A stretch of 14,760 nucleotides of DNA, taken from contig JAQULX010000023.1 in the NCBI GenBank assembly GCA_028718465.1, positions 1 through 14,760 of the forward strand, written 5' to 3'. Shown here piece by piece: positions 3,759 through 13,927 of the stretch (its first letter is position 1; every line of letters starts with the position of its first letter). This stretch comes from Dehalococcoidales bacterium (GTDB taxonomy: Bacteria > Chloroflexota > Dehalococcoidia > Dehalococcoidales > UBA3254). The position numbers were made by a program, and so were the translations under genes. The notes beneath the pieces are model-generated. The model was not told where the DNA came from and searched no databases. It worked only from the letters and a program-made list of their open reading frames with translations.

Positions 3759-4679
3759 TCACAGACCAAGGGCAGAAGGGGTGTCAAGCTCTTGTATAAT
3801 AAACTCCAGCAAATCTTTTAGAATCGGTTTCTCAAATTCATTATTTTCATTGGAAATAGCATCGATTGGTACCGTTATATCCTCGACAAATGGCAATATT
3901 TTTAATTCTCGGCCAAGAACTTCCTTTTCGGCTTCTTTAATGTGCCAGAAACCAATAGCATGCCCTTCTTTAACAAATACCTTGAGAACATCCATGCTCA
4001 AGGTATTTACCATTATATGAGGAGAAGCTGGTATCCCTGCATCACGGAATTTTTCGATTACCAGGGTATGCAGAAGTGAACCTGGTTGTCCACAGATAAT
4101 TGGCATATCCTGTAAGTCGTGCCAGTCCACTCTTTCTTTTTGGGCGATGGGGAGATTGGGAGAAGCGACAAACACTAATTTCTCCGCATCAGAGATTCTA
4201 ACCGGTCTCACCGGGATAGTTCCATAGTCCGTGCTAACTACGATACCAATATCGATCTCCATGTCAGCCACATCCTGGATAATTTTGGTTGTGTTGGTAA
4301 TGACCATCTCGATATTGACTTCCGGATAAGATTTACAGATTCTGGATAGTGCTGTGGTAACCTGCATAAGGAGAAGTGGAGTAATACCAATCTTGATAAG
4401 TTTTTGTTTTAATGAATTAAGATATCTATCCACATTACTCAGTTGTTCCCAAATGCCTTTAGTAAGTCGATAAAGGTCCTGCCCAGCTTCAGTCAGATAG
4501 ACTCTCTGCTTCTTAATATTGAATAATTTTACTCCAGCAGACTTCTCCAAACTCTTGAGATGGTAACTCACAGTGGGTTGAGTCAAACAAAGTTTATCGG
4601 CTGCTATGGAGATGCTTTGTTCCGTTGCAACATTATAAAAGACCATAAGTTGATGTAAATCTAAATCCGATACACTCAT
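3759..4679 (-). CDS. LysR-type transcriptional regulator
   Basis: A 306-residue regulator of standard LysR length. The N-terminal winged helix-turn-helix spans about residues 8-67; the recognition segment runs through AADKLCLTQPTVSYHLKSLE (26-45). Residues from about 90 to 300 form the periplasmic-binding-like effector domain, with the dimer linker helix between. It is divergent from the molybdenum enzyme genes across a 280-base gap holding two palindromic repeats, the usual arrangement for a LysR activator of a catabolic operon that also controls itself. The effector is unknown; a phenolic substrate of the neighbouring enzymes would be the natural guess. No strong ribosome site precedes ATG 4677-4679. 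The gene is AT-rich: bases 3841-3900 have 20 G+C in 60. Confidence 0.95.
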   Translation of the reverse strand: MSVSDLDLHQLMVFYNVATEQSISIAADKLCLTQPTVSYHLKSLEKSAGVKLFNIKKQRVYLTEAGQDLYRLTKGIWEQLSNVDRYLNSLKQKLIKIGITPLLLMQVTTALSRICKSYPEVNIEMVITNTTKIIQDVADMEIDIGIVVSTDYGTIPVRPVRISDAEKLVFVASPNLPIAQKERVDWHDLQDMPIICGQPGSLLHTLVIEKFRDAGIPASPHIMVNTLSMDVLKVFVKEGHAIGFWHIKEAEKEVLGRELKILPFVEDITVPIDAISNENNEFEKPILKDLLEFIIQELDTPSALGL

Positions 4680-4719
4680 AATCGTTAACCTATCTTAGCC
4701 AATTCATCTTTAGCTTATA

Positions 4720-4738
4720 TCTATAGTTATATAGAATT
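4720..4738 (+). repeat. 19-base direct repeat, copy 1 (candidate LysR operator)
   Basis: The sequence TCTATAGTTATATAGAATT occurs here and again, without change, at 4795-4813. Its core CTATA-GTTA-TATAG (4721-4734) is a 14-base palindrome. This copy lies about 40 bases upstream of the lysR start codon and next to a TATAAG (minus strand, 4714-4719) that could be the lysR -10, so it is well placed for autorepression. Confidence 0.6.
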
Positions 4739-4794
4739 TTTAATGTTTTTGGGGCTAAACTGACCGCTTAAAGAGAAGATAACCGCATCCTACC

Positions 4795-4813
4795 TCTATA
4801 GTTATATAGAATT
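4795..4813 (+). repeat. 19-base direct repeat, copy 2 (candidate LysR operator)
   Basis: Identical to the copy at 4720-4738, with the palindrome at 4796-4809. The two copies start 75 bases apart, about seven helical turns. This copy ends 7 bases before a predicted -35 element, placing its centre near -54 of the predicted start, the usual position of a LysR activation site. Confidence 0.6.
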
Positions 4814-4820
4814 ATTTGTC

Positions 4821-4850
4821 TTGTTCCCTCCTAAATCAACTACATATAAT
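4821..4850 (+). promoter_or_regulatory. Predicted sigma-70 promoter of the molybdenum enzyme operon
   Basis: TTGTTC (4821-4826), an 18-base spacer, then a perfect TATAAT (4845-4850). The -35 matches consensus at only three positions, as expected of an activator-dependent promoter. It would give a leader of about 100 bases before ATG 4960. The palindromic repeat copy 2 sits directly upstream. Confidence 0.5.
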
Positions 4851-4959
4851 GAATTTAACCACAGCTTGCTTTATGCCCAAATTGTAACATTTGATAAAGC
4901 GGTAGTCCAGAAACCTTGAGCAGGAAAGTAATGACTGATTTAGTGTCCAGGAGGATAGC

Positions 4960-7923
4960 ATGGAATTCTCTAATATTAAACTTCGACTTTTACTCTTTGC
5001 AGCAGCCCAATATATGAAATTGGCAACTATTAGATACCCCGCATTTAAAGAACGTATTAAAGGAAAAAATCTAACAGCGCAAATCAAATTAATGGATAAC
5101 TCTATTGGGCGCTATTTTATATTTAAGGATGGCAAAATCATATCCAGGAGCGGAATCCATTCTCAACCCGATATTTGTATGGGAATCCGGGATGCCAGGC
5201 TGGCCGGAAAACTTCTGGTGCCTGCCCGAGACCAGATGGAACAAATGAATGGCATGAAGAATTTTTGTTTAACACTGGATGGACAGGATGAGCTTACAAG
5301 CTGGTTCATGGAAACTCTCAGCTTATTATTTACAATCGGCCTGAAATATGGAGTAGACGTCGGTAGAGGAGTTAAGAGATATGTTAACAATTCCAATGCC
5401 GGACCCATGTTCGTGTACGTGAAAGATGGCAGGATCATCCGGATGACTCCCATTGAATTCGATAGCGATGATGCTCCTTCTTTTACTATTCAAGCTCGAG
5501 GGAAAATCTTCACACCTCCACGTAAATGCACTCTGTCTCCATTCGGGTACTCCTTAAAATCTACTGTCTATTCACAAGATAGAATTTTATATCCACTGAA
5601 GCGGGTTGATTTCGATCCTAAGGGCAAACGTCATCCTGAAAACAGGGGTATCTCAGAATATGAAAGAATCAGCTGGGATGAGGCGCTGGATATAGTGGCA
5701 AATGAGATAAAAAGGGTGAAAAGAGAGTATGGGCCAGGCGCAATTCTAAGTAGTACTCCTTCACATCATAACTGGGGCATTGTGGGATATTATTTAAGCG
5801 CTCACCGTCGGTTTATGAATGCCATCGGTTGTACTCAAACAGTAGCTAACCCGGATAGTTGGGAAGGCTGGTTTTGGGGAGCGACCCATCATTGGGGAAA
5901 CAGCATGCGTCTGGGGGGTGCTGAGATTTATGGAACTGTGGAGGATTGTCTTAAAGAATGTGAAATGATGGTATTCTGGAGCAGCGATCCTGAATCTATC
6001 CCGGGAGCGTATAGCGGGTTTGAAAGCACAATACGGCGTCAGTGGCTCCAGGAATTAGGCGTGAAAACGGTCCATATTAACCCTTACTACGATCCGACTA
6101 TCGCTTTAATGGGTGGCAAATGGTTGGCTCCTAAACCGGATACCGGCAACGCGATGGCACTGGCAATAGCCTACGTCTGGATAACCGAAAATCTCTATGA
6201 CAAAGAATACATAACCAAAAGGACTACCGGATTTGAAAAATGGCTGGATTATATCTTGGGGAAAGAGGATGGGATTCCCAAGACTCCTGAATGGCAGGAG
6301 CAAGAGACAGGGGTTCCTGCCAAGGATGTTCGGGCATTAGCTCGTGAGTGGGGATCTAAGAAAACATATCTTGGAGCTGGCAGTCCGGGGAATACTGAAG
6401 GAGGAGCCTGCCGGTGTGCTACCGGCCTTGAATGGGCGCGTTCTATGGTCTGCCTGATGGCTATGCAGGGTATCGGTAAACCTGGCATTAATATGGGAAA
6501 TATGACCTATGGAGCACCGCTGGATACTCGCTTCTATTTCCCGGGTTATGCCGAAGGCGGAATCTCCGGGGATATCGAGGGTACAGCCTCAGCAATCAAT
6601 CTTTATCAGAGGATGCCTCATCTGCCATCGGTGAATACGGTTTTCCAAAAGGTCCCGCGCTTGAATATACCGGAGGCGATCTTAGAAGGTCATTGCGAGG
6701 GTTATTTCAACAATACCAAGTCTATAGAGGGGCAGTTCGTTAAGTTTTCGTATCCAGCGCCAGGTAATTCCCGAATTAAGATGTACTACAAGTACGGCGG
6801 TTCATATATCGGTACCATGAATAACACCAACCGCTATGTCAAATCTTACCGCACACCGGAGTTAGAGTTCGTAGTGAACCAGTCAATCTGGATGGAGGGA
6901 GAAGCCAAATTTGCGGATGTTATCTTGCCGGCCTGCACCAATTTCGAACGCTGGGATATCGGAGAAACCTGCAATGCCGGAGGGTACATAATTCATAATT
7001 TCAATAAACTCAATCACAGGATAATTACTATACAGCATAAGTGTATTGAGCCTTTAGGCGAATCCAAATCCGACTTCCAGATCTTTCTGGAATTATCCAA
7101 GAGGCTGGGGTTGGGAATGTATTATTCCGAGGGAGCTACGGAGCTTGACTGGTGCAAGAAGATATTCGATGCCTCGGATATGCCAAAGGTTATTTCCTGG
7201 AAGAAATTCCTGAAAAAGGGGTACTATGTATTACCAGCGCCAAAAGAGGAACTTAAACCACCACTGGCTTATAAATGGTTTGCAGAAGGCCGGAAAAAAG
7301 ATTTAACCGAGCCTATCCCCCTGCCGTCGGACTACACTGAGGGATATCTGATTGGACTTCAAACTCAGTCCGGTAAGATTGAGTTCGAGTGCTCCAGCTT
7401 GAAGAGGCTGGATCCAAATGATCCGGAAAGGCCTACGATCAGTAAATATATTCCGTCATGGGAGGGTCCTCATACCCAGGAACTATATGCCAGGTTTCCG
7501 TTGCAGATGGTCTCATCACATCCTCGTTATAGCTTCCATACTATGAACGATGGGAAAGACAGCACTATTAATGATGTGAAAGAGCACCGAGAATTAATTA
7601 ACGGCTATTATTATTGGATTATCCGATTGAATACTCAGGATGCGGCGGCAAGGGGTATTAAGCATAACGACCTGGTAAAAGTATTCAACGACCGGGGTGC
7701 AGTAATTTGCGCAGCTCATGTGACGGAACGTTTGCCCAAAGGGACAGTGCATTCATACTGTTCATCAGCAATTTACGATCCGCTTGGAGAGCCTGGTTAT
7801 TCAGTCGACCGTGCTGGAACCGTAAATTTATTAACTTCGTCAAGGCCAATTATTAAGAGGTCGCATAGCAACGCTTCTAATACTTGCTTAGTACAGATCG
7901 AGAAATGGACCGAGGAGGGCTGA
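4960..7923 (+). CDS. Molybdopterin large subunit, pyrogallol hydroxytransferase-like, with N-terminal SCP2-like domain
   Basis: A 987-residue DMSO reductase family enzyme, most like the large subunit of pyrogallol:phloroglucinol hydroxytransferase. Residues 1-135 are an extra domain resembling sterol carrier protein 2 ([12 protein letters not shown] at 50-61, then a helix-rich end at 109-130). From about 147 the Mo fold begins, with no CxxC Fe-S motif, as in transhydroxylase. S300 in NPDSWEGW is the likely Mo ligand. H269, D299 and Y530 sit where His144, Asp174 and Tyr404 act in the Pelobacter enzyme, but Arg153 is replaced by Y278. Residues from about 845 are the dinucleotide-binding domain. 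No Tat or Sec signal is seen, so it is cytoplasmic. AGGAGG precedes ATG 4960 by 5 bases. The stop is 1 base from the small-subunit gene. Substrate unknown; catechol dehydroxylases and resorcinol hydroxylases are related alternatives. Confidence 0.88.
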
Positions 7924-7924
7924 A

Positions 7925-8839
7925 ATGAGAAAATGGAACATGATCATCGATGTCGCCAAATGCGAAGACTGTAATAATTGTTTTCTGGCTTGTAAAGATG
8001 AGTTTGTGGATAATGATTTTCCACCCTACTCGGTTGCTCAGCCCCGGCACGGTCAGAGATGGATCGATATCTTAACCAGGGAAAGAGGCCAATGCCCCTT
8101 CATTGATGTTGCTAATCTTCCCATGTCATGCATGCATTGCGATGATGCGCCGTGTATCAGGAACTCCAAAAATGGAGCCGTTTATAAGATGAGCAATGGT
8201 ATTGTCATAATAGATCCAGAAAAAGCAAAAGGGCAGAAGGACTTATTAAAAGCCTGTCCCTACGGAGCTATCTGGTGGAATAATGAAAAAAACGTAGCCC
8301 AGAAATGCACTCTCTGTGTTCATTTGTTGGAGGAAGGCTGGAAAGAGCCGAGATGTGTTCAAGCCTGCCCCACCGGAGCCAGACGTTTCATAAAAGCCGA
8401 TGATTCTCAGATGGCGCAGATTATCGAGACGGAGAGTCTGGAAGTACTCCATCCAGAATATCATACCCACCCACGGGTTTATTTTAAGAATTTGTACCGC
8501 TACACTAAATGTTTTATTGGGGGTACTGTCGCTTTCGAGCAAGCCGGTGTAACAGACTGTGGGAATGGTGCCAAAGTGACACTATTTAAGAACTCTATTA
8601 AACTGAGCGAAACCCTCACGGATAATTATGGAGATTTTAAGTTTGATAACCTTGAAGAGAATAGCGGCACATATATTCTTGAAGCAAGTTATAAAAGCTA
8701 TCCAAAACAAACGATGGAAGTAGAGTTAACCGCCAGTCGGAATATAGGCACTATCTTATTTAAAAGTCCAATAACAGGCTCCGATCAGCGTCTATCCGAT
8801 GTAGAATACCAAGAGAGTCGTACCAGGAACTCTGGATAA
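7925..8839 (+). CDS. Iron-sulfur small subunit with C-terminal transthyretin/CnaB-like domain, pyrogallol hydroxytransferase-like
   Basis: A 304-residue electron-transfer subunit. Exactly twelve Cys are arranged for three [4Fe-4S] clusters: C13, 16, 19, 23; C69, 72, 77 and 111; C128, 131, 144, 148. Pelobacter AthS also carries three clusters. Residues about 196-280 form a small beta domain of transthyretin, CnaB or carboxypeptidase-regulatory type (GGTVAFEQAGVTD, then LTDNYGDFKFDNL), which also marks the AthS subunit and is absent from ordinary DmsB-like proteins. A 24-residue polar tail follows; AthS is about 275 residues, so this one is longer. The start lies 1 base after the upstream stop, with GAGGAGG inside the end of that gene, so the two are coupled. 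It is the only small subunit for two large subunits. No signal peptide is visible. Confidence 0.9.
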   Translation: MRKWNMIIDVAKCEDCNNCFLACKDEFVDNDFPPYSVAQPRHGQRWIDILTRERGQCPFIDVANLPMSCMHCDDAPCIRNSKNGAVYKMSNGIVIIDPEKAKGQKDLLKACPYGAIWWNNEKNVAQKCTLCVHLLEEGWKEPRCVQACPTGARRFIKADDSQMAQIIETESLEVLHPEYHTHPRVYFKNLYRYTKCFIGGTVAFEQAGVTDCGNGAKVTLFKNSIKLSETLTDNYGDFKFDNLEENSGTYILEASYKSYPKQTMEVELTASRNIGTILFKSPITGSDQRLSDVEYQESRTRNSG

Positions 8840-8868
8840 CCCCCTGGATTAATAAAGGATTGAAAGGT

Positions 8869-8897
8869 CTGATAAGTTCTCTATGCCCTACTATAAC
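8869..8897 (+). promoter_or_regulatory. Possible internal promoter for the second large subunit
   Basis: CTGATA (8869-8874), 17 bases, TATAAC (8892-8897), in the 87-base gap between the small-subunit gene and the second large-subunit gene. It matches consensus at 4 and 5 of 6 positions. Chance matches of this quality are common in AT-rich DNA, so this is only a candidate; no terminator separates the genes and read-through is equally likely. Confidence 0.25.
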
Positions 8898-8926
8898 TAT
8901 CGAAATATCAGCTAAGGAAGAGATTC

Positions 8927-11434
8927 ATGGGACAAGAACAAATTTTAGTTAATTGCACCACTGGCGGTCCGGTATTCGTGCATGTTAGAGGTGGAAAAAT
9001 CGTCCGGGTTAGACCTCTGATATTTAATAATCAGACTGACGCAGATTCATGGAAGATTGAGGCCAAGGGGCATCAATTTGCCCCTCTCAGGAAAGCCTGC
9101 GTCTCCTCTTATACCCTGACCGAAAAGATGAGAGTTTACTCCGAGGATCGAATTAAATATCCCATGAAAAGGATTGATTTTAATTCTCACGGGGAGAGAC
9201 ATCCCGAGGATCGAGGTCGATCCGGTTATATCCGGATTAGCTGGGATGAAGCCTTAGATATTGTTAGTGAGGAAATGAAGCGAATCCGCAGTCAGTATGG
9301 AGTTGAGGCCATCACATCCTGTCCTGCTTCGCACCATAATTGGGGCAATATCGGTTATCGTACTAATACCTGGGCTCGTTTTTTTAATACCATCGGATTT
9401 ACCGAAATATTCGATAATCCAGATAGCTGGGAAGGTTGGCATTGGGGAGCCACCCATGTTTATGGTTTTTACTGGCGATTAGGTCTTATCGAACCTTATG
9501 ATATGCTTGAGGAAGCCCTGAAAAATACTGAATTAATTGTGTATTGGGGCAATGACCCCGATACCACCCGCGGGAACTATGGTGGGAATGAGGCTGCTCT
9601 CTGGCGTTTATGGCTTAAGCAAATTGGGGTCAAGCAAATTTTCATTGATCCTTTCTGTAACTATACCGCTGCAGTCCATGGTGATAAATGGATTGCTCCC
9701 AGACCCGGTACGGATTCAGCATTAGCACTGGCAATTGCTTATACCTGGGTTAAAGAGAATACCTACGATAAAGAATATATCGAAACCCGTACTATTGGAT
9801 TTGAGCAATTTAAAAATTATATTTTAGGGAAGGATGACGGAGTGCTGAAAACTCCGGAATGGGCGGCAGAGCTAAGCGGAATTCCAGCCCGTATTATTAT
9901 TGCCTTAGCCCGGGAATGGGCATCCAAACGGACAATGCTGGCTGCCGGCACCCGCGGAGGCATGGGCGGCGCCTGTAAGGCGGCTTATGCTCATGAATGG
10001 GCCAGGCTGATGGTCTTGCTCCAGGCTATGCAGGGATTAGGGAAAAAGGGGGTGAATATCTGGGGCACTACTACCGGTCCTCCTTACAACTATAAAATTA
10101 ATTTCCCGGGTTATGCTGAATGGGGAATTAACAAACTAGCCCAAAACCCTGCTATCAATCCCGTTAAACAAAAATTATATCGCCCACTCCTACCCGAAGC
10201 TATTCTCAACCCACCGATTAGCTGGCTGGGACAAGGCTTTTGCGGCTCTTCTCTGGAACAACAATTTATCCCCTACACTTACCCCATGGAAGGTTACCAT
10301 GAGATAAAAATGCTTTACCGCTATGGCGGTTCGTTTATTGGTACCATGTGCGATACCAATCGATGGGTAAAAATGTACCAGAGTCCGAAGTTAGAATTTG
10401 TAGTCAATCAGGACTGCTGGTGGAGTACCGAAACTCAATTCGCAGATGTTATTTTACCTGCCTGCACGAATTTTGAGAGAAATGATATCTCAGAATGGGG
10501 GAATGCGGGAGGTTATTCTCAGCATCTTTCAACAGTCTGTAATCACAGGGTATTTATCTATCAGCAGAAATGCATCGAGCCTCTTGGGGAATCCAGGTCG
10601 GATTACCTTATATTCAGCGAACTTGCTGAAAGATTGGGCTTTAGGGAACAATATACGGAAGGTAATACCGAGGAAGACTGGATCGAAAAGATGTTTAGAG
10701 CTTCTGATTTACCAAAGTATATCTCTTTTGAGGAGTTCCAGAAAAAGGGCTATTTTGTAGCTCCGCAGCTTGAAGAACATAAACCCACGCCGGCTCTTCA
10801 CTGGTTTTATGAAGGAAGAGACGCAGATACTCCAGAAAGTAATCCCAAGAAAATTGCAGGTAAGTTGAAGGAACTGGGTACTTATAGCGGAAAGATAGAG
10901 TTTGTATCGGAAAGTTTGCAAAAATTTACTCCGGACGACCCGGAGAGAGCTCCAATGCCACACTACATCCCCAGTTGGGAAGGGCATACCTCAGAACTGG
11001 CAAAAAAGTATCCTTTACAACTTATTTCACCTCATCCCAGATTCTCTTATCATTCACATCACGACCATAAAGTCAAATGGTTAAATGAGATTCCTGGTCA
11101 CCGTCAGTATAAGGATGGCTATGCATGGCAGGAAGTCCATATCCACCCTGACGATGCTGGTGCTCGAGGTATCCGAGAAAACGATATCGTTAAGCTATAC
11201 AATGATCGAGGAGCGGTCCTAGGGATAGCTAAACTTACTCAAAGAGTAAAACCGGGAGTAATCCATTCTTATGAATCTTCCGCTCAATATGATCCACTTG
11301 AAAGAGGCAAGGCGGGTAGCGTTGACCAGGGAGGTTGTATTAACTTACTGACTCCTTCCAGGATGATGTCTAAAAATGTGGCTGGAATGGCCCCCAATTC
11401 CTGTTTGATAGAAATTGAAAAATGGCAAACATAA
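8927..11434 (+). CDS. Molybdopterin large subunit, pyrogallol hydroxytransferase-like (second copy)
   Basis: An 835-residue paralogue of the large subunit at 4960-7923, without the SCP2-like extension and close to the 875 residues of Pelobacter AthL. It starts directly in the fold (LVNCTTGGPVFVHVRGGKIV) with no Fe-S Cys motif. S167 in NPDSWEGW is the likely Mo ligand. With a constant offset of 8, H136, Y144, R145, D166, W168 and Y396 fall on His144, Tyr152, Arg153, Asp174, Trp176 and Tyr404 of transhydroxylase, so this copy keeps the known active site better than its partner. The same offset puts C549 on Cys557. AAGGAAG precedes ATG 8927 by 6 bases. It probably shares the single small subunit upstream. 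No signal peptide. The reaction may be hydroxyl transfer, hydroxylation or dehydroxylation of a phenol; the substrate is not evident. Confidence 0.9.
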   Translation: MGQEQILVNCTTGGPVFVHVRGGKIVRVRPLIFNNQTDADSWKIEAKGHQFAPLRKACVSSYTLTEKMRVYSEDRIKYPMKRIDFNSHGERHPEDRGRSGYIRISWDEALDIVSEEMKRIRSQYGVEAITSCPASHHNWGNIGYRTNTWARFFNTIGFTEIFDNPDSWEGWHWGATHVYGFYWRLGLIEPYDMLEEALKNTELIVYWGNDPDTTRGNYGGNEAALWRLWLKQIGVKQIFIDPFCNYTAAVHGDKWIAPRPGTDSALALAIAYTWVKENTYDKEYIETRTIGFEQFKNYILGKDDGVLKTPEWAAELSGIPARIIIALAREWASKRTMLAAGTRGGMGGACKAAYAHEWARLMVLLQAMQGLGKKGVNIWGTTTGPPYNYKINFPGYAEWGINKLAQNPAINPVKQKLYRPLLPEAILNPPISWLGQGFCGSSLEQQFIPYTYPMEGYHEIKMLYRYGGSFIGTMCDTNRWVKMYQSPKLEFVVNQDCWWSTETQFADVILPACTNFERNDISEWGNAGGYSQHLSTVCNHRVFIYQQKCIEPLGESRSDYLIFSELAERLGFREQYTEGNTEEDWIEKMFRASDLPKYISFEEFQKKGYFVAPQLEEHKPTPALHWFYEGRDADTPESNPKKIAGKLKELGTYSGKIEFVSESLQKFTPDDPERAPMPHYIPSWEGHTSELAKKYPLQLISPHPRFSYHSHHDHKVKWLNEIPGHRQYKDGYAWQEVHIHPDDAGARGIRENDIVKLYNDRGAVLGIAKLTQRVKPGVIHSYESSAQYDPLERGKAGSVDQGGCINLLTPSRMMSKNVAGMAPNSCLIEIEKWQT

Positions 11435-11652
11435 TACTGGAAACTAAATTAAAAATGAATCCTATACTGCTGTCACTGATAGTTGTACCACGGTTAGTAA
11501 GCGCTGTAACCCATACTATGTCCGCTGCTTCCAATTGTCTCCTTTTAGATATGCTCAAGATAAACCTTTCGGCAATTATTGACACAACGACACCGTATTC
11601 AGCGATACTAATTATGAGATGCTTCACGCGGTTTGCGCTGGAGGGAATTTAT

Positions 11653-11661
11653 TGTTAAAAT
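11653..11661 (+). promoter_or_regulatory. Extended -10 promoter of rplY
   Basis: TGTTAAAAT, an extended TG followed by TAAAAT (5 of 6 to consensus), with a poor TTGCGC 17 bases upstream. The same 9-mer precedes the Trm112-like gene at 12543-12551. It would give an rplY leader of about 95 bases. Confidence 0.4.
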
Positions 11662-11682
11662 AGTTCTTTGTTGGGTTTAAAG

Positions 11683-11745
11683 ACCAGCAATGCAATTCCT
11701 GGCAGAGCGGTGAGGGGAATCTGGTGAAAACGGCTCCTGGAGCCG
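11683..11745 (+). other. Structured leader upstream of rplY
   Basis: Two stem-loops can form in the leader. The first pairs ACCAG (11683-11687) and ATTCC (11695-11699) with the contiguous GGAAT-CTGGT (11716-11725), leaving a 7-base bulge. The second is the perfect inverted repeat CGGCTCC-T-GGAGCCG (11731-11745), which ends 6 bases before AAGGAG (11752-11757), the rplY ribosome site. It has no T-run, so it is not a terminator. It may control L25 translation. Confidence 0.3.
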
Positions 11746-11762
11746 AATAATAAGGAGTTATA

Positions 11763-12446
11763 ATGGCGGACAAAATCGAAATCAAAGTCAGCGAACGAAC
11801 GGTTCAGGGTAAAAAAGTAAGATTCTTAAGGAACAAAGGGGTGGTCCCGGTCCACCTGTTTGGCCATAATATGGATTCCCAGAGCTTACAGGGCAATGCC
11901 GCAGATCTGGGCAAGGTTATTTCTCAGGCTGGGAGAACCCGCCTGATTAACCTCACTGTCGGCGATTCTGCGACACCTCGCCCGGTGCTGGTGCGTGAAA
12001 TCCAGAAAGACCCGATACGTGGCAATCTGATCCATGTGGACTTTTATGCGGTGAACATGACCGAAACGATCAAGGTGGAAGTTCCCATCGTTATAGTCGG
12101 CGAGTCTCCGGCCTTAAAGGTCAGAGAAAATATGCTGTACCAGACTTTAGACAGTTTGCTTGTCGAGTGCCTACCGGACAAGATGCCGGATCGCGTCCAG
12201 GTAGATATCAGCAGCATTACCGAGGCGGACCAGGCCATACATGTAAAAGATGTGCAGCTACCTGATGTCGAGATATTGAATGATCCCGATCTGCCTATCG
12301 TCAAGGTCAGTCTGAGACCAGTTGAAGCAGTAGAAGAGAGACCGGCGGCTGAGGAAGCTGTAGCTGGCGCGGCTGAAGCCGCCCCGGCAGCGGGAACAGA
12401 GGCTGCTGAGGCCCATGCAGAGACGGCTAAACCCGAGAAAAAGTAG
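11763..12446 (+). CDS. rplY: 50S ribosomal protein L25 (CTC/TL5 type)
   Basis: L25 binds 5S rRNA in the large ribosomal subunit. The 227 residues show the two-domain CTC form. Residues 1-95 are the 5S-binding domain (KKVRFLRNKGVVPVHLFG at 17-34, then PVLVREIQKDPIRGNLIHVD, where HVDFY is a family hallmark). Residues about 100-185 are the beta domain (VEVPIVIVGESPA, then VECLPDKMPDRVQVDIS). The last 40 residues are an Ala/Glu-rich, low-complexity tail common in this group. AAGGAG precedes ATG by 5 bases. The gene is followed by a strong terminator and so is probably transcribed alone. Confidence 0.96.
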   Translation: MADKIEIKVSERTVQGKKVRFLRNKGVVPVHLFGHNMDSQSLQGNAADLGKVISQAGRTRLINLTVGDSATPRPVLVREIQKDPIRGNLIHVDFYAVNMTETIKVEVPIVIVGESPALKVRENMLYQTLDSLLVECLPDKMPDRVQVDISSITEADQAIHVKDVQLPDVEILNDPDLPIVKVSLRPVEAVEERPAAEEAVAGAAEAAPAAGTEAAEAHAETAKPEKK

Positions 12447-13621: not shown

Positions 13622-13927
13622 CTATTCCTCGTTACTCCAGTTTTGCATTATTTGTTTTAGTTTCTGGGCCAGTTTTGGGCTGGAGCGCAGCCGTTCGACA
13701 AAAACGGGGCAGGCTTCCAGCAAAGAATTCTGTGCCGTGATAGCCATTCCGGAAAGAAAGCTCTGAAGGCCGGAATCAACGCCAAACTGGTTCATGCCCA
13801 GCGGTGAGGACTCCAGTTGTTTTTTCAAATCTTCAGCCGAGAACCTCATCGGCATTACACAGGACTTGTACCAGGGACACTCCTTGCACTGGACTACTCC
13901 ATAAGCTTCGTTTAAAATATCACCCAT
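13622..13927 (-). CDS. Conserved-looking small Cys4 protein, function unknown
   Basis: A 101-residue protein I do not recognise. Four Cys are present: C14, C17 and C23 in QCKECPWYKSC, and C73 in EACPVF. That spacing suits one zinc or Fe-S site. The rest is helical, with a charged C-terminal end (RLRSSPKLAQKLKQIMQNW). AAGGAG lies 7 bases before the ATG, and the gene is first in the folK-queD operon with 3 bases to folK, so it is probably expressed. An operon link to pterin synthesis is all that can be inferred. No signal peptide or membrane segment is seen. Confidence 0.75.
   Translation of the reverse strand: MGDILNEAYGVVQCKECPWYKSCVMPMRFSAEDLKKQLESSPLGMNQFGVDSGLQSFLSGMAITAQNSLLEACPVFVERLRSSPKLAQKLKQIMQNWSNEE

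What the first reader, a model, noticed from the sequence alone, without database searches (positions are those of the whole stretch)
3759..11434. Transhydroxylase-type molybdenum locus with two large subunits, one small subunit and its own LysR regulator
Seen: two paralogous Mo-enzyme large subunits flank a single 12-Cys Fe-S subunit with a transthyretin/CnaB-like end, behind a divergent LysR gene. Known: pyrogallol hydroxytransferase (AthL/AthS), resorcinol hydroxylase and related enzymes use one large and one small subunit. Inference: the two large subunits either share the small one, giving two enzymes of different specificity, or form a mixed complex. The target is probably a phenolic compound. 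No phloroglucinol reductase or ring-cleavage gene lies in the window, so the classic pyrogallol pathway is not supported by context.
Basis: partly seen in the sequence, partly recalled or inferred. Interest (0 to 1): 0.75.

Follow-up and report, generated by a model that had tools for sequence, protein, structure and literature searches.

The report
Paired molybdenum transhydroxylases, one small subunit
A sediment bacterium carries a three-gene operon for two related molybdenum enzymes that probably move hydroxyl groups on phenols; one has an extra fat-binding-type domain, and the other belongs to a branch usually encoded without the normal iron-sulfur partner beside it.

Summary
In detail: LysR (divergent), then L1–S–L2, two AthL-type large subunits around one AthS-type small subunit. 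L1 belongs to a cross-phylum SCP2-fused clade, 75 of 83 rows having S within 300 nt. L2 falls in another clade; in its branch 13 of 15 determinable relatives lack an adjacent S. Window S is an L1-type S. In G062, the held genome nearest by cysS among those searched, the L2 orthologue (81%) has no adjacent S but an orphan L2-type S lies elsewhere. The remark that the pyrogallol/phloroglucinol pathway is unsupported is true of the window but misleading: some relatives of L1 and L2 sit beside the four gene families of that pathway, and G062 has all four in one cluster. Best reading: two trihydroxybenzene transhydroxylases of different specificity feeding that pathway, L1 with S, L2 with a non-dedicated S (elsewhere or shared) or none. 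Substrates and partnerships are inferred. New variant of a known kind.

The parts
3759..4679 (-). LysR-type regulator, divergent from L1
   Evidence: Pfam HTH_1 8.4e-18 and LysR_substrate 5.2e-23; below the cut-off of each of the 25 NCBIfam models shown
4680..4959 (.). divergent intergenic region, presumed regulatory
   Evidence: position only; nothing beyond chance-level consensus matches
4960..7923 (+). L1: AthL-type large subunit with an extra N-terminal domain (987 aa)
   Evidence: 4v4c_A 1013.6 bits over residues 138-984; SCP2-fused clade 100/100
4960..5349 (+). N-terminal SCP2-like domain of L1 (about residues 1-130)
   Evidence: Pfam SCP2 in 18 of 60 family members scanned at E up to 1, best 0.0016, none for the window's own copy; hhalign against 16 SCP2 domains: probability 87 local (58 columns), 68 global (100 columns); AlphaFold model pLDDT 75.6, pTM 0.67
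7925..8839 (+). S: AthS-type small subunit, 12 cluster cysteines (three 4Fe-4S expected) and a transthyretin-like C-terminal domain
   Evidence: 4v4c_B 265 bits; Fer4_11 7.4e-25; groups with S partners of L1-type proteins
8927..11434 (+). L2: second AthL-type large subunit, without N-terminal extension (835 aa)
   Evidence: 4v4c_A 926 bits; nearest row an 81% gene without adjacent S (G062, L138)

Best explanation
The operon makes two Mo-bisMGD, serine-ligated transhydroxylases with different substrates or regiochemistry that convert tri- or tetrahydroxybenzenes step by step towards phloroglucinol, which a ring-reducing pathway encoded elsewhere in the genome then degrades. L1 with S is the AthLS-like heterodimer, carrying an SCP2-like domain of unknown role that may bind a hydrophobic ligand or help maturation. 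L2 is a second transhydroxylase from a branch that usually has no S beside it; most likely it pairs with a small subunit not dedicated to it, an L2-type S elsewhere in the genome (as in G062) or the S of L1, less likely with none. Shown: families, clades, conserved active-site residues, operon order, gene contexts of relatives. Inferred: substrates, the pathway in this genome, subunit partnership, role of the SCP2-like domain.
For: AthL/AthS are by far the best solved matches. AthL positions 144, 152, 174, 175, 176, 404 and 560 (active-site roles recalled, not read here) are kept in L1 and L2; Arg153 is Tyr in L1 (Tyr or Trp in 30 of 30 SCP2-fused rows) and Arg in L2. SCP2-fused genes: S within 300 nt in 75 of 83 rows, 5 without, 3 undeterminable. 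Cyclase, BKACE, 3HCDH and SDR, the families of the C. scatologenes pathway, lie together in 8 of 81 loci (80 SCP2-fused loci plus the window) and three of the four in 4 more; the L007 cyclase has Trp20 and Tyr22, the two residues named for CsDPGC. L2-clade genes stand in such clusters too: all four families in G098 and Moorella, some of them in G025, G003, G022 and G029. G062, the nearest by cysS (76%) among the 84 of 101 genomes with a cysS match and the holder of the nearest L2 (81%), has all four families in one cluster and an orphan S 66-68% identical to S partners of L2-clade proteins. SCP2-fused and L2-clade genes lie within 11 kb of each other in Moorella sulfitireducens, Desulfamplus and Desulfobacula, and in a Peptococcaceae MAG whose row is placed unsurely.
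Against: No ring-reduction or cleavage gene lies in the window, and 57 of 81 loci, the window among them, show none of the four families (20 of 81 loci are under 10 kb). No random-locus control was run; SDR and 3HCDH genes are common in general, and the queries came from some of these same loci. G001, which has close L1 and L2 relatives, has a cyclase but no BKACE at 1e-30; G031 and G055, with the other closest L1 relatives, have neither. The SDR of G098 did not bring up a protein named phloroglucinol reductase among the 60 matches shown. The nearest determinable L1 relative (G055) has no L2 after S (L210), so the trio is not conserved there. Genomes compared are draft, many-contig assemblies of untold completeness.
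Confidence: 0.55

Rival explanations
1. L1 and L2 share the operon's single S, giving two alternative heterodimers of different specificity.
For: Three genes on one strand with gaps of 1 and 87 nt; L2-clade genes outside this branch have their own S; L2 departs from columns conserved at 97% or more in S-paired proteins at only 8 places; in four other genomes two large-subunit genes are followed by a single S, and in G062 one S lies between two large-subunit genes.
Against: S is an L1-type S and has the L1-type state at 7 of 8 columns that separate the two partner groups; 13 of 15 determinable relatives of L2 have no adjacent S; G062 keeps an L2-type S elsewhere.
Confidence: 0.3
2. L2 works without any small subunit, as a redox-neutral single-subunit transhydroxylase.
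For: 13 of 15 determinable relatives (rows from 10 genomes) without adjacent S; in G046, G036 and G053 the only S found lies beside another, distant large subunit, and G057 has none; three pairs within the branch show dN/dS of about 0.05-0.08 (one member of each pair is cut by a contig end, so its S status is open, and the window's own pair is saturated).
Against: G062 has an orphan S of the L2 type; L2 keeps the consensus of S-paired proteins nearly everywhere; drafts may miss genes.
Confidence: 0.27
3. L1, S and L2 form one mixed complex, for example passing a tetrahydroxybenzene co-substrate between two active sites.
For: Order L1-S-L2 here, and Lf-L2t-S in L109, L136 and L153 with about 20 nt between the large-subunit genes and in L155 with about 110 nt.
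Against: AthLS is a heterodimer in the crystal (recalled); L2 relatives occur alone beside housekeeping genes, which strict dependence on L1-S would not allow.
Confidence: 0.1
4. The enzymes act on a different substrate, such as resorcinol or a larger, more hydrophobic phenol, and the phloroglucinol context of relatives does not carry over.
For: SCP2-like domain; AthL Arg153 replaced in all 30 SCP2-fused rows aligned; 57 of 81 loci without the pathway families, some with TRAP transporters or FAA hydrolases instead.
Against: The loci with all four families span three phyla (Myxococcota-labelled Deltaproteobacteria, Chloroflexota, Actinomycetota) and hold SCP2-fused enzymes; G062 has the set.
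Confidence: 0.3

Closest known systems
Pyrogallol-phloroglucinol transhydroxylase AthLS of Pelobacter acidigallici (PDB 4v4c)
   Same: Best solved match of both large subunits and of S; Ser ligand and flanking residues conserved; no N-terminal Fe-S motif in the large subunits by eye, 12 cluster cysteines and transthyretin-like end in S.
   Different: Two large subunits per small one; SCP2-like domain on L1; Arg153 replaced in L1; L2 in a separate clade, mostly without adjacent S in its branch.
Pyrogallol hydroxytransferases annotated in Dehalococcoidia (DEH-C11, RBG-2, RBG-1351; PMC4959651, PMC3971608)
   Same: Same enzyme family in Chloroflexi, several copies per genome (passages read).
   Different: The passages seen mention no SCP2 fusion, no S-less branch and no two-large-one-small operon; those sequences were not fetched.
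Phloroglucinol pathway of Clostridium scatologenes (PMC10470551)
   Same: Neighbours of some SCP2-fused and L2-clade genes are of the same four families, and the L007 cyclase has the named Trp20/Tyr22.
   Different: None of these genes is in the window; the C. scatologenes sequences were not fetched and aligned.
Catechol dehydroxylases and acetylene hydratase
   Same: Same MopB superfamily; act on or near phenols.
   Different: Acetylene hydratase 2e7z scores 50 and 63 bits against 1013 and 926 for AthL; PMC7028382 places catechol dehydroxylases near acetylene hydratase and away from the transhydroxylase (passages).

Membership tests
AthLS (pyrogallol hydroxytransferase) family | Large subunit closest to AthL among solved Mo enzymes, with the AhtL-like first domain | tested here: met
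AthLS (pyrogallol hydroxytransferase) family | Ser ligand of Mo and neighbouring active-site residues | tested here: met
   positions 144, 152, 174, 175, 176, 404, 560 identical in L1 and L2; 153 differs in L1 (roles recalled)
AthLS (pyrogallol hydroxytransferase) family | Small subunit with 12 cluster cysteines and a transthyretin-like domain | tested here: met
   the domain hit is below Pfam's own cut-off, but the AthS alignment runs through it
AthLS (pyrogallol hydroxytransferase) family | One dedicated small subunit per large subunit | tested here: inconclusive
   two L and one S in the window; L1 has its S; a second S elsewhere in this genome cannot be excluded
AthLS (pyrogallol hydroxytransferase) family | Pyrogallol to phloroglucinol activity | not testable with these tools
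   needs an assay
SCP2 superfamily (N-terminal domain of L1) | Profile match and SCP2-like topology | tested here: inconclusive
   18 of 60 members hit SCP2 at E up to 1, best 0.0016, window copy none; hhalign 87/68; no SCP2 match by profile among solved sequences; no fold comparison collected
Phloroglucinol degradation cluster | PGR, DPGC, TfD and TAL beside the transhydroxylase | tested here: not met
   none in the window; all four families, by homology only, in 8 of the 80 other SCP2-fused loci
Catechol dehydroxylases | Closer to acetylene hydratase than to AthL | tested here: not met
   scores; definition
Resorcinol hydroxylase RhLS | Grouping with Azoarcus anaerobius RhL | not tested
   no RhL sequence was fetched

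The most novel reading that the evidence does not exclude
L2 represents a branch of transhydroxylases that has dropped the iron-sulfur subunit and performs hydroxyl transfer as a redox-neutral, single-subunit Mo enzyme, working in tandem with an SCP2-fused, S-dependent transhydroxylase.
Probability: 0.27. Interest if true: 0.65.

Novelty: new variant of a known kind. Interest (0 to 1): 0.47.

Why it matters
Whether the Fe-S subunit is needed for transhydroxylation, which is redox-neutral overall, is open as far as I recall; a branch encoded apart from it makes the question testable. The SCP2-fused clade, spread over several phyla and in some genomes beside phloroglucinol-pathway genes, would give a likely role to many proteins now mostly named molybdopterin or S/N-oxide reductases (names; one, P0065, is already called pyrogallol hydroxytransferase), and bears on anaerobic breakdown of plant phenols in sediments.

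Tried and rejected
Interface-loss test: of 253 columns conserved in S-paired large subunits, 12 are changed or lost in the S-less branch. Other, S-paired groups judged against their own references changed 5 (L2-like with S), 3 (clades B and C) and 24 (SCP2-fused), so 12 is within the range of S-paired groups and says nothing about loss of S binding. The AthLS coordinates were not at hand.

Adaptation of S to two partners: not seen; window S has a tail of 20 residues missing in at least 90% of the 64 other L1-type partner S proteins compared.

LysR conservation: an apparent 48% match beside a Peptococcaceae locus did not survive the stricter tblastn count (only the window at 33% or more); dropped. 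The selenium-type LysR model NF040786 is the best NCBIfam hit, but 113.8 bits is far below its cut-off of 250.

Synteny: cysS of G062 has none of the window's right-hand genes within the stretch fetched.

Plasmid search with S: 8 records, 37-47% identity; only shows spread. Wider survey: the N-domain is found in 3 of 393 genomes of the class and 4 of 24 genomes looked at, so L1 is rare there.

Single-sequence fold of the N-domain was poor (pLDDT 41) and was replaced by the 60-row alignment.

Limits of counts: labels 'L2t' were set by identity of 54% or more and also cover clades B and C; counts of S-less relatives come from the tree. Pathway neighbours of L2-clade genes were read in chosen loci, not counted over a random set; 13 of the 37 genomes were chosen after their neighbourhoods had been seen. 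One search covered the genomes of 28 of the 80 loci. One search scored at most 6 candidates per genome, so its lists of large subunits are incomplete. Searches list 120 of 6136 and of 4178 hits.
Full report
What is there. The window holds ispF, cysS, an ABC permease and ATPase on the minus strand, a LysR gene, then L1, S and L2 on the plus strand, followed by genes read as ribosomal protein L25, QueD and FolK and a thioredoxin-fold (AhpC-TSA) protein (the names ispF, cysS, L25, QueD and FolK are from recall of the sequences). L1 and S are 1 nt apart, S and L2 87 nt; no plus-strand terminator-like site lies between the starts of L1 and L2. One transcript for the trio is likely but inferred.

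Family. Among solved structures both large subunits match the pyrogallol hydroxytransferase large subunit best and by far (1013.6 and 926.1 bits; next DMSO and TMAO reductases at 252 and 307 bits), and S matches its small subunit best (265 bits). NPDSWEGW with the Mo-ligating serine is identical in AthL, L1 and L2, and so are AthL positions 144, 152, 174, 176, 404 and 560 (their roles are recalled). L1 differs at 153 (Tyr for Arg), as do all 30 SCP2-fused rows of that alignment (22 Tyr, 8 Trp). S has 15 cysteines, 12 in the pattern expected for three 4Fe-4S clusters.

The extra domain of L1. AthL aligns from residue 138 of L1 on. A match to the first ~135 residues was found in a large subunit at all 80 loci of the genome scan. 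Pfam finds in the window's own copy only a chance-level hit, but SCP2 in 18 of 60 aligned members (best E 0.0016) and Alkyl_sulf_C in 5. A profile comparison with 16 SCP2 domains from six genomes gives probability 87 (local, 58 columns) or 68 (global, 100 columns). The AlphaFold model has pLDDT 75.6 and runs two helices, four strands, two helices, a strand and a helix. A profile search of solved sequences found no SCP2 protein, and no fold comparison was collected. I call it SCP2-like, with moderate confidence. Its role is unknown.

Where L1 belongs. Of 83 SCP2-fused rows, 75 have an S within 300 nt on either side, 5 do not (three of these have one 0.7-2.1 kb away), 3 cannot be judged. In both trees L1 is inside this clade (100 and 100/100), with AthL nearby. 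It is rare in the class of G001, a Dehalococcoidales MAG: 3 of 393 genomes.

Where L2 belongs. L2 lies in another clade. Its nearest held relative is an 81% gene in G062, which also has the closest cysS (76%) among 101 genomes searched. In the 100-row tree the branch with L2 holds 21 rows: 13 without adjacent S (from 10 genomes), 2 with, 5 undeterminable because of contig ends, and L2 (SH support 88; inner 19 rows 96). In the 48-row IQ-TREE run the matching 16 rows have support 93/80 and the larger set of 20 rows 97/97 (13 without S, 6 with, L2). The two S-bearing members are G029 and G098. Several S-less members share a neighbourhood (uvrC, a HAD phosphatase, an exo/endonuclease-family gene by Pfam in L144; same order and lengths in L145, L147, L148 and L150, and in part in L141-L143), which points to vertical descent. 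Three pairs within the branch give dN/dS of about 0.05-0.08.

Is there an S elsewhere? In G046, G036 and G053 the only S found lies beside another, distant large subunit; G033 has one such S plus two weak partial matches; G057 has none. But G062, the nearest genome, has an S with no large subunit within the 20 kb fetched around it, and that S is 66-68% identical to S partners of L2-clade proteins and only 47% to the window's S. So trans pairing with a dispersed L2-type S is a serious possibility, also for the window, whose own genome is not held.

Small subunit. In a tree of 86 S proteins the window's S groups with S partners of L1-type proteins from G001 and G055; 18 S partners of non-fused large subunits form a separate group (100), while three from clade C fall on the L1 side. 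At 8 columns that separate the groups window S has the L1 state at 7. So S came with L1, and nothing shows that it has adapted to a second partner.

Two large, one small elsewhere. In four genomes drawn as relatives of G001 (G001 itself, G029, G032, G037) a distant large subunit and an L2-like one are followed by a single S (L109, L155, L136, L153; in L109 and L136 the first gene is cut by the locus end, in L155 a partial S also lies upstream), and in G062 one S lies between two large-subunit genes (L163). L1-S-L2 itself was seen only in the window.

Pathway. Common neighbours of SCP2-fused genes are a cyclase, a BKACE protein, a 3-hydroxyacyl-CoA dehydrogenase, an SDR, a cupin and transporters (Pfam on representatives). 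These are the families of dihydrophloroglucinol cyclohydrolase, triacetate acetoacetate-lyase, 3-hydroxy-5-oxohexanoate dehydrogenase and phloroglucinol reductase of Clostridium scatologenes (PMC10470551: abstract, part 1 of the Results, section 12 and passages read). All four occur in 8 of 81 loci (L002, L003, L004, L007, L014, L017, L023, L041), three in 4, two in 2, one in 10, none in 57, the window among them; 20 of the 81 are under 10 kb. The queries came from some of these loci and no random-locus control was run; cyclases occur in 15 of 81 and BKACE in 11. The cyclase of L007 has Trp20 and Tyr22 as named for CsDPGC; cyclases near L2-clade genes have W-P-F (G098), W-P-W (G025, G003) or W-P-S (G008, G022) there. 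Of the L2-clade loci read, G098 and Moorella have all four families, G025 three, G003 and G022 two, G029 two on the contig piece seen. G062 and G010 have all four in one cluster without a large subunit beside it. SCP2-fused and L2-clade genes lie 7.4 kb apart in Moorella sulfitireducens, 8.8 in Desulfamplus, 10.8 in Desulfobacula and 1.4 in a Peptococcaceae MAG, whose L2-clade row is on a long branch and unsurely placed. By the tree 9 of 28 genomes with an SCP2-fused gene also have an L2-clade gene, that MAG included. I infer that the two act in one pathway. A title in the reference list of PMC3971608 records sequential transhydroxylations from hydroxyhydroquinone to phloroglucinol in Pelobacter massiliensis; its content is recalled only. 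The most specific hypothesis is that L1 and L2 do different transfers in such a series.

What is known. Pyrogallol hydroxytransferases in this part of Chloroflexi have been reported, three copies in DEH-C11 (PMC4959651) and two complexes each in RBG-2 and RBG-1351 (PMC3971608; passages). I saw no report of an SCP2 fusion or of an S-less branch in searches; these cover open-licence papers only, were read as listings apart from the papers named, and two of them listed only 20 of 148 and 25 of 10,656 papers.

Verdict. Family membership about 0.95; two enzymes of different specificity about 0.75; link to the phloroglucinol route about 0.65-0.7; for L2, an S elsewhere about a third, the operon's S about 0.3, none about 0.27, a mixed complex about 0.1.

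Noticed in passing
window 4001-12000: G+C per kb is 0.39-0.49 over the LysR-L1-S-L2 stretch, against 0.51-0.56 in the first 3 kb and 0.49-0.50 after 12 kb; with the rarity of L1 in the class this hints at lateral acquisition.
   Followed up: partly
window 8777-8836: S ends in 20 residues missing in at least 90% of the other L1-type partner small subunits compared; they lie just before L2.
   Followed up: partly
L199:10459-11382 (G062:C11): An orphan AthS-type gene of the L2 type, about 5 kb from a full set of phloroglucinol-pathway families and with no large subunit in 20 kb.
   Followed up: yes
L017, L023, L031: In three actinobacterial loci S is encoded upstream of the SCP2-fused large subunit instead of downstream.
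   Followed up: no
L140:3904-4482, L139, L002, L005: An FmdE-family gene (Pfam for L140; the others by similarity) stands beside transhydroxylase genes of both clades; role unknown.
   Followed up: partly
L195, L197, L022: Two different cyclase genes in tandem, one with W-P-S and one with S-Y-P at the site of the CsDPGC Trp/Tyr pair; perhaps a second ring-cleavage step.
   Followed up: no
G001, G029, G032, G037, G046, G117: These draft genomes of 1.5-2.2 Mb each give six AthL-type matches at 1e-100, the most that one search scored per genome.
   Followed up: partly
L034-L080: Many of the 80 SCP2-fused loci are from Alpha- and Betaproteobacteria (Rhodospirillales, Xanthobacteraceae, SAR116); TRAP permease genes occur in 10 of the loci and FAA hydrolases in 6, mostly without phloroglucinol-pathway families.
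   Followed up: no
window 13622-13927: A 101-aa minus-strand ORF between FolK and the thioredoxin-fold gene has no Pfam match.
   Followed up: no
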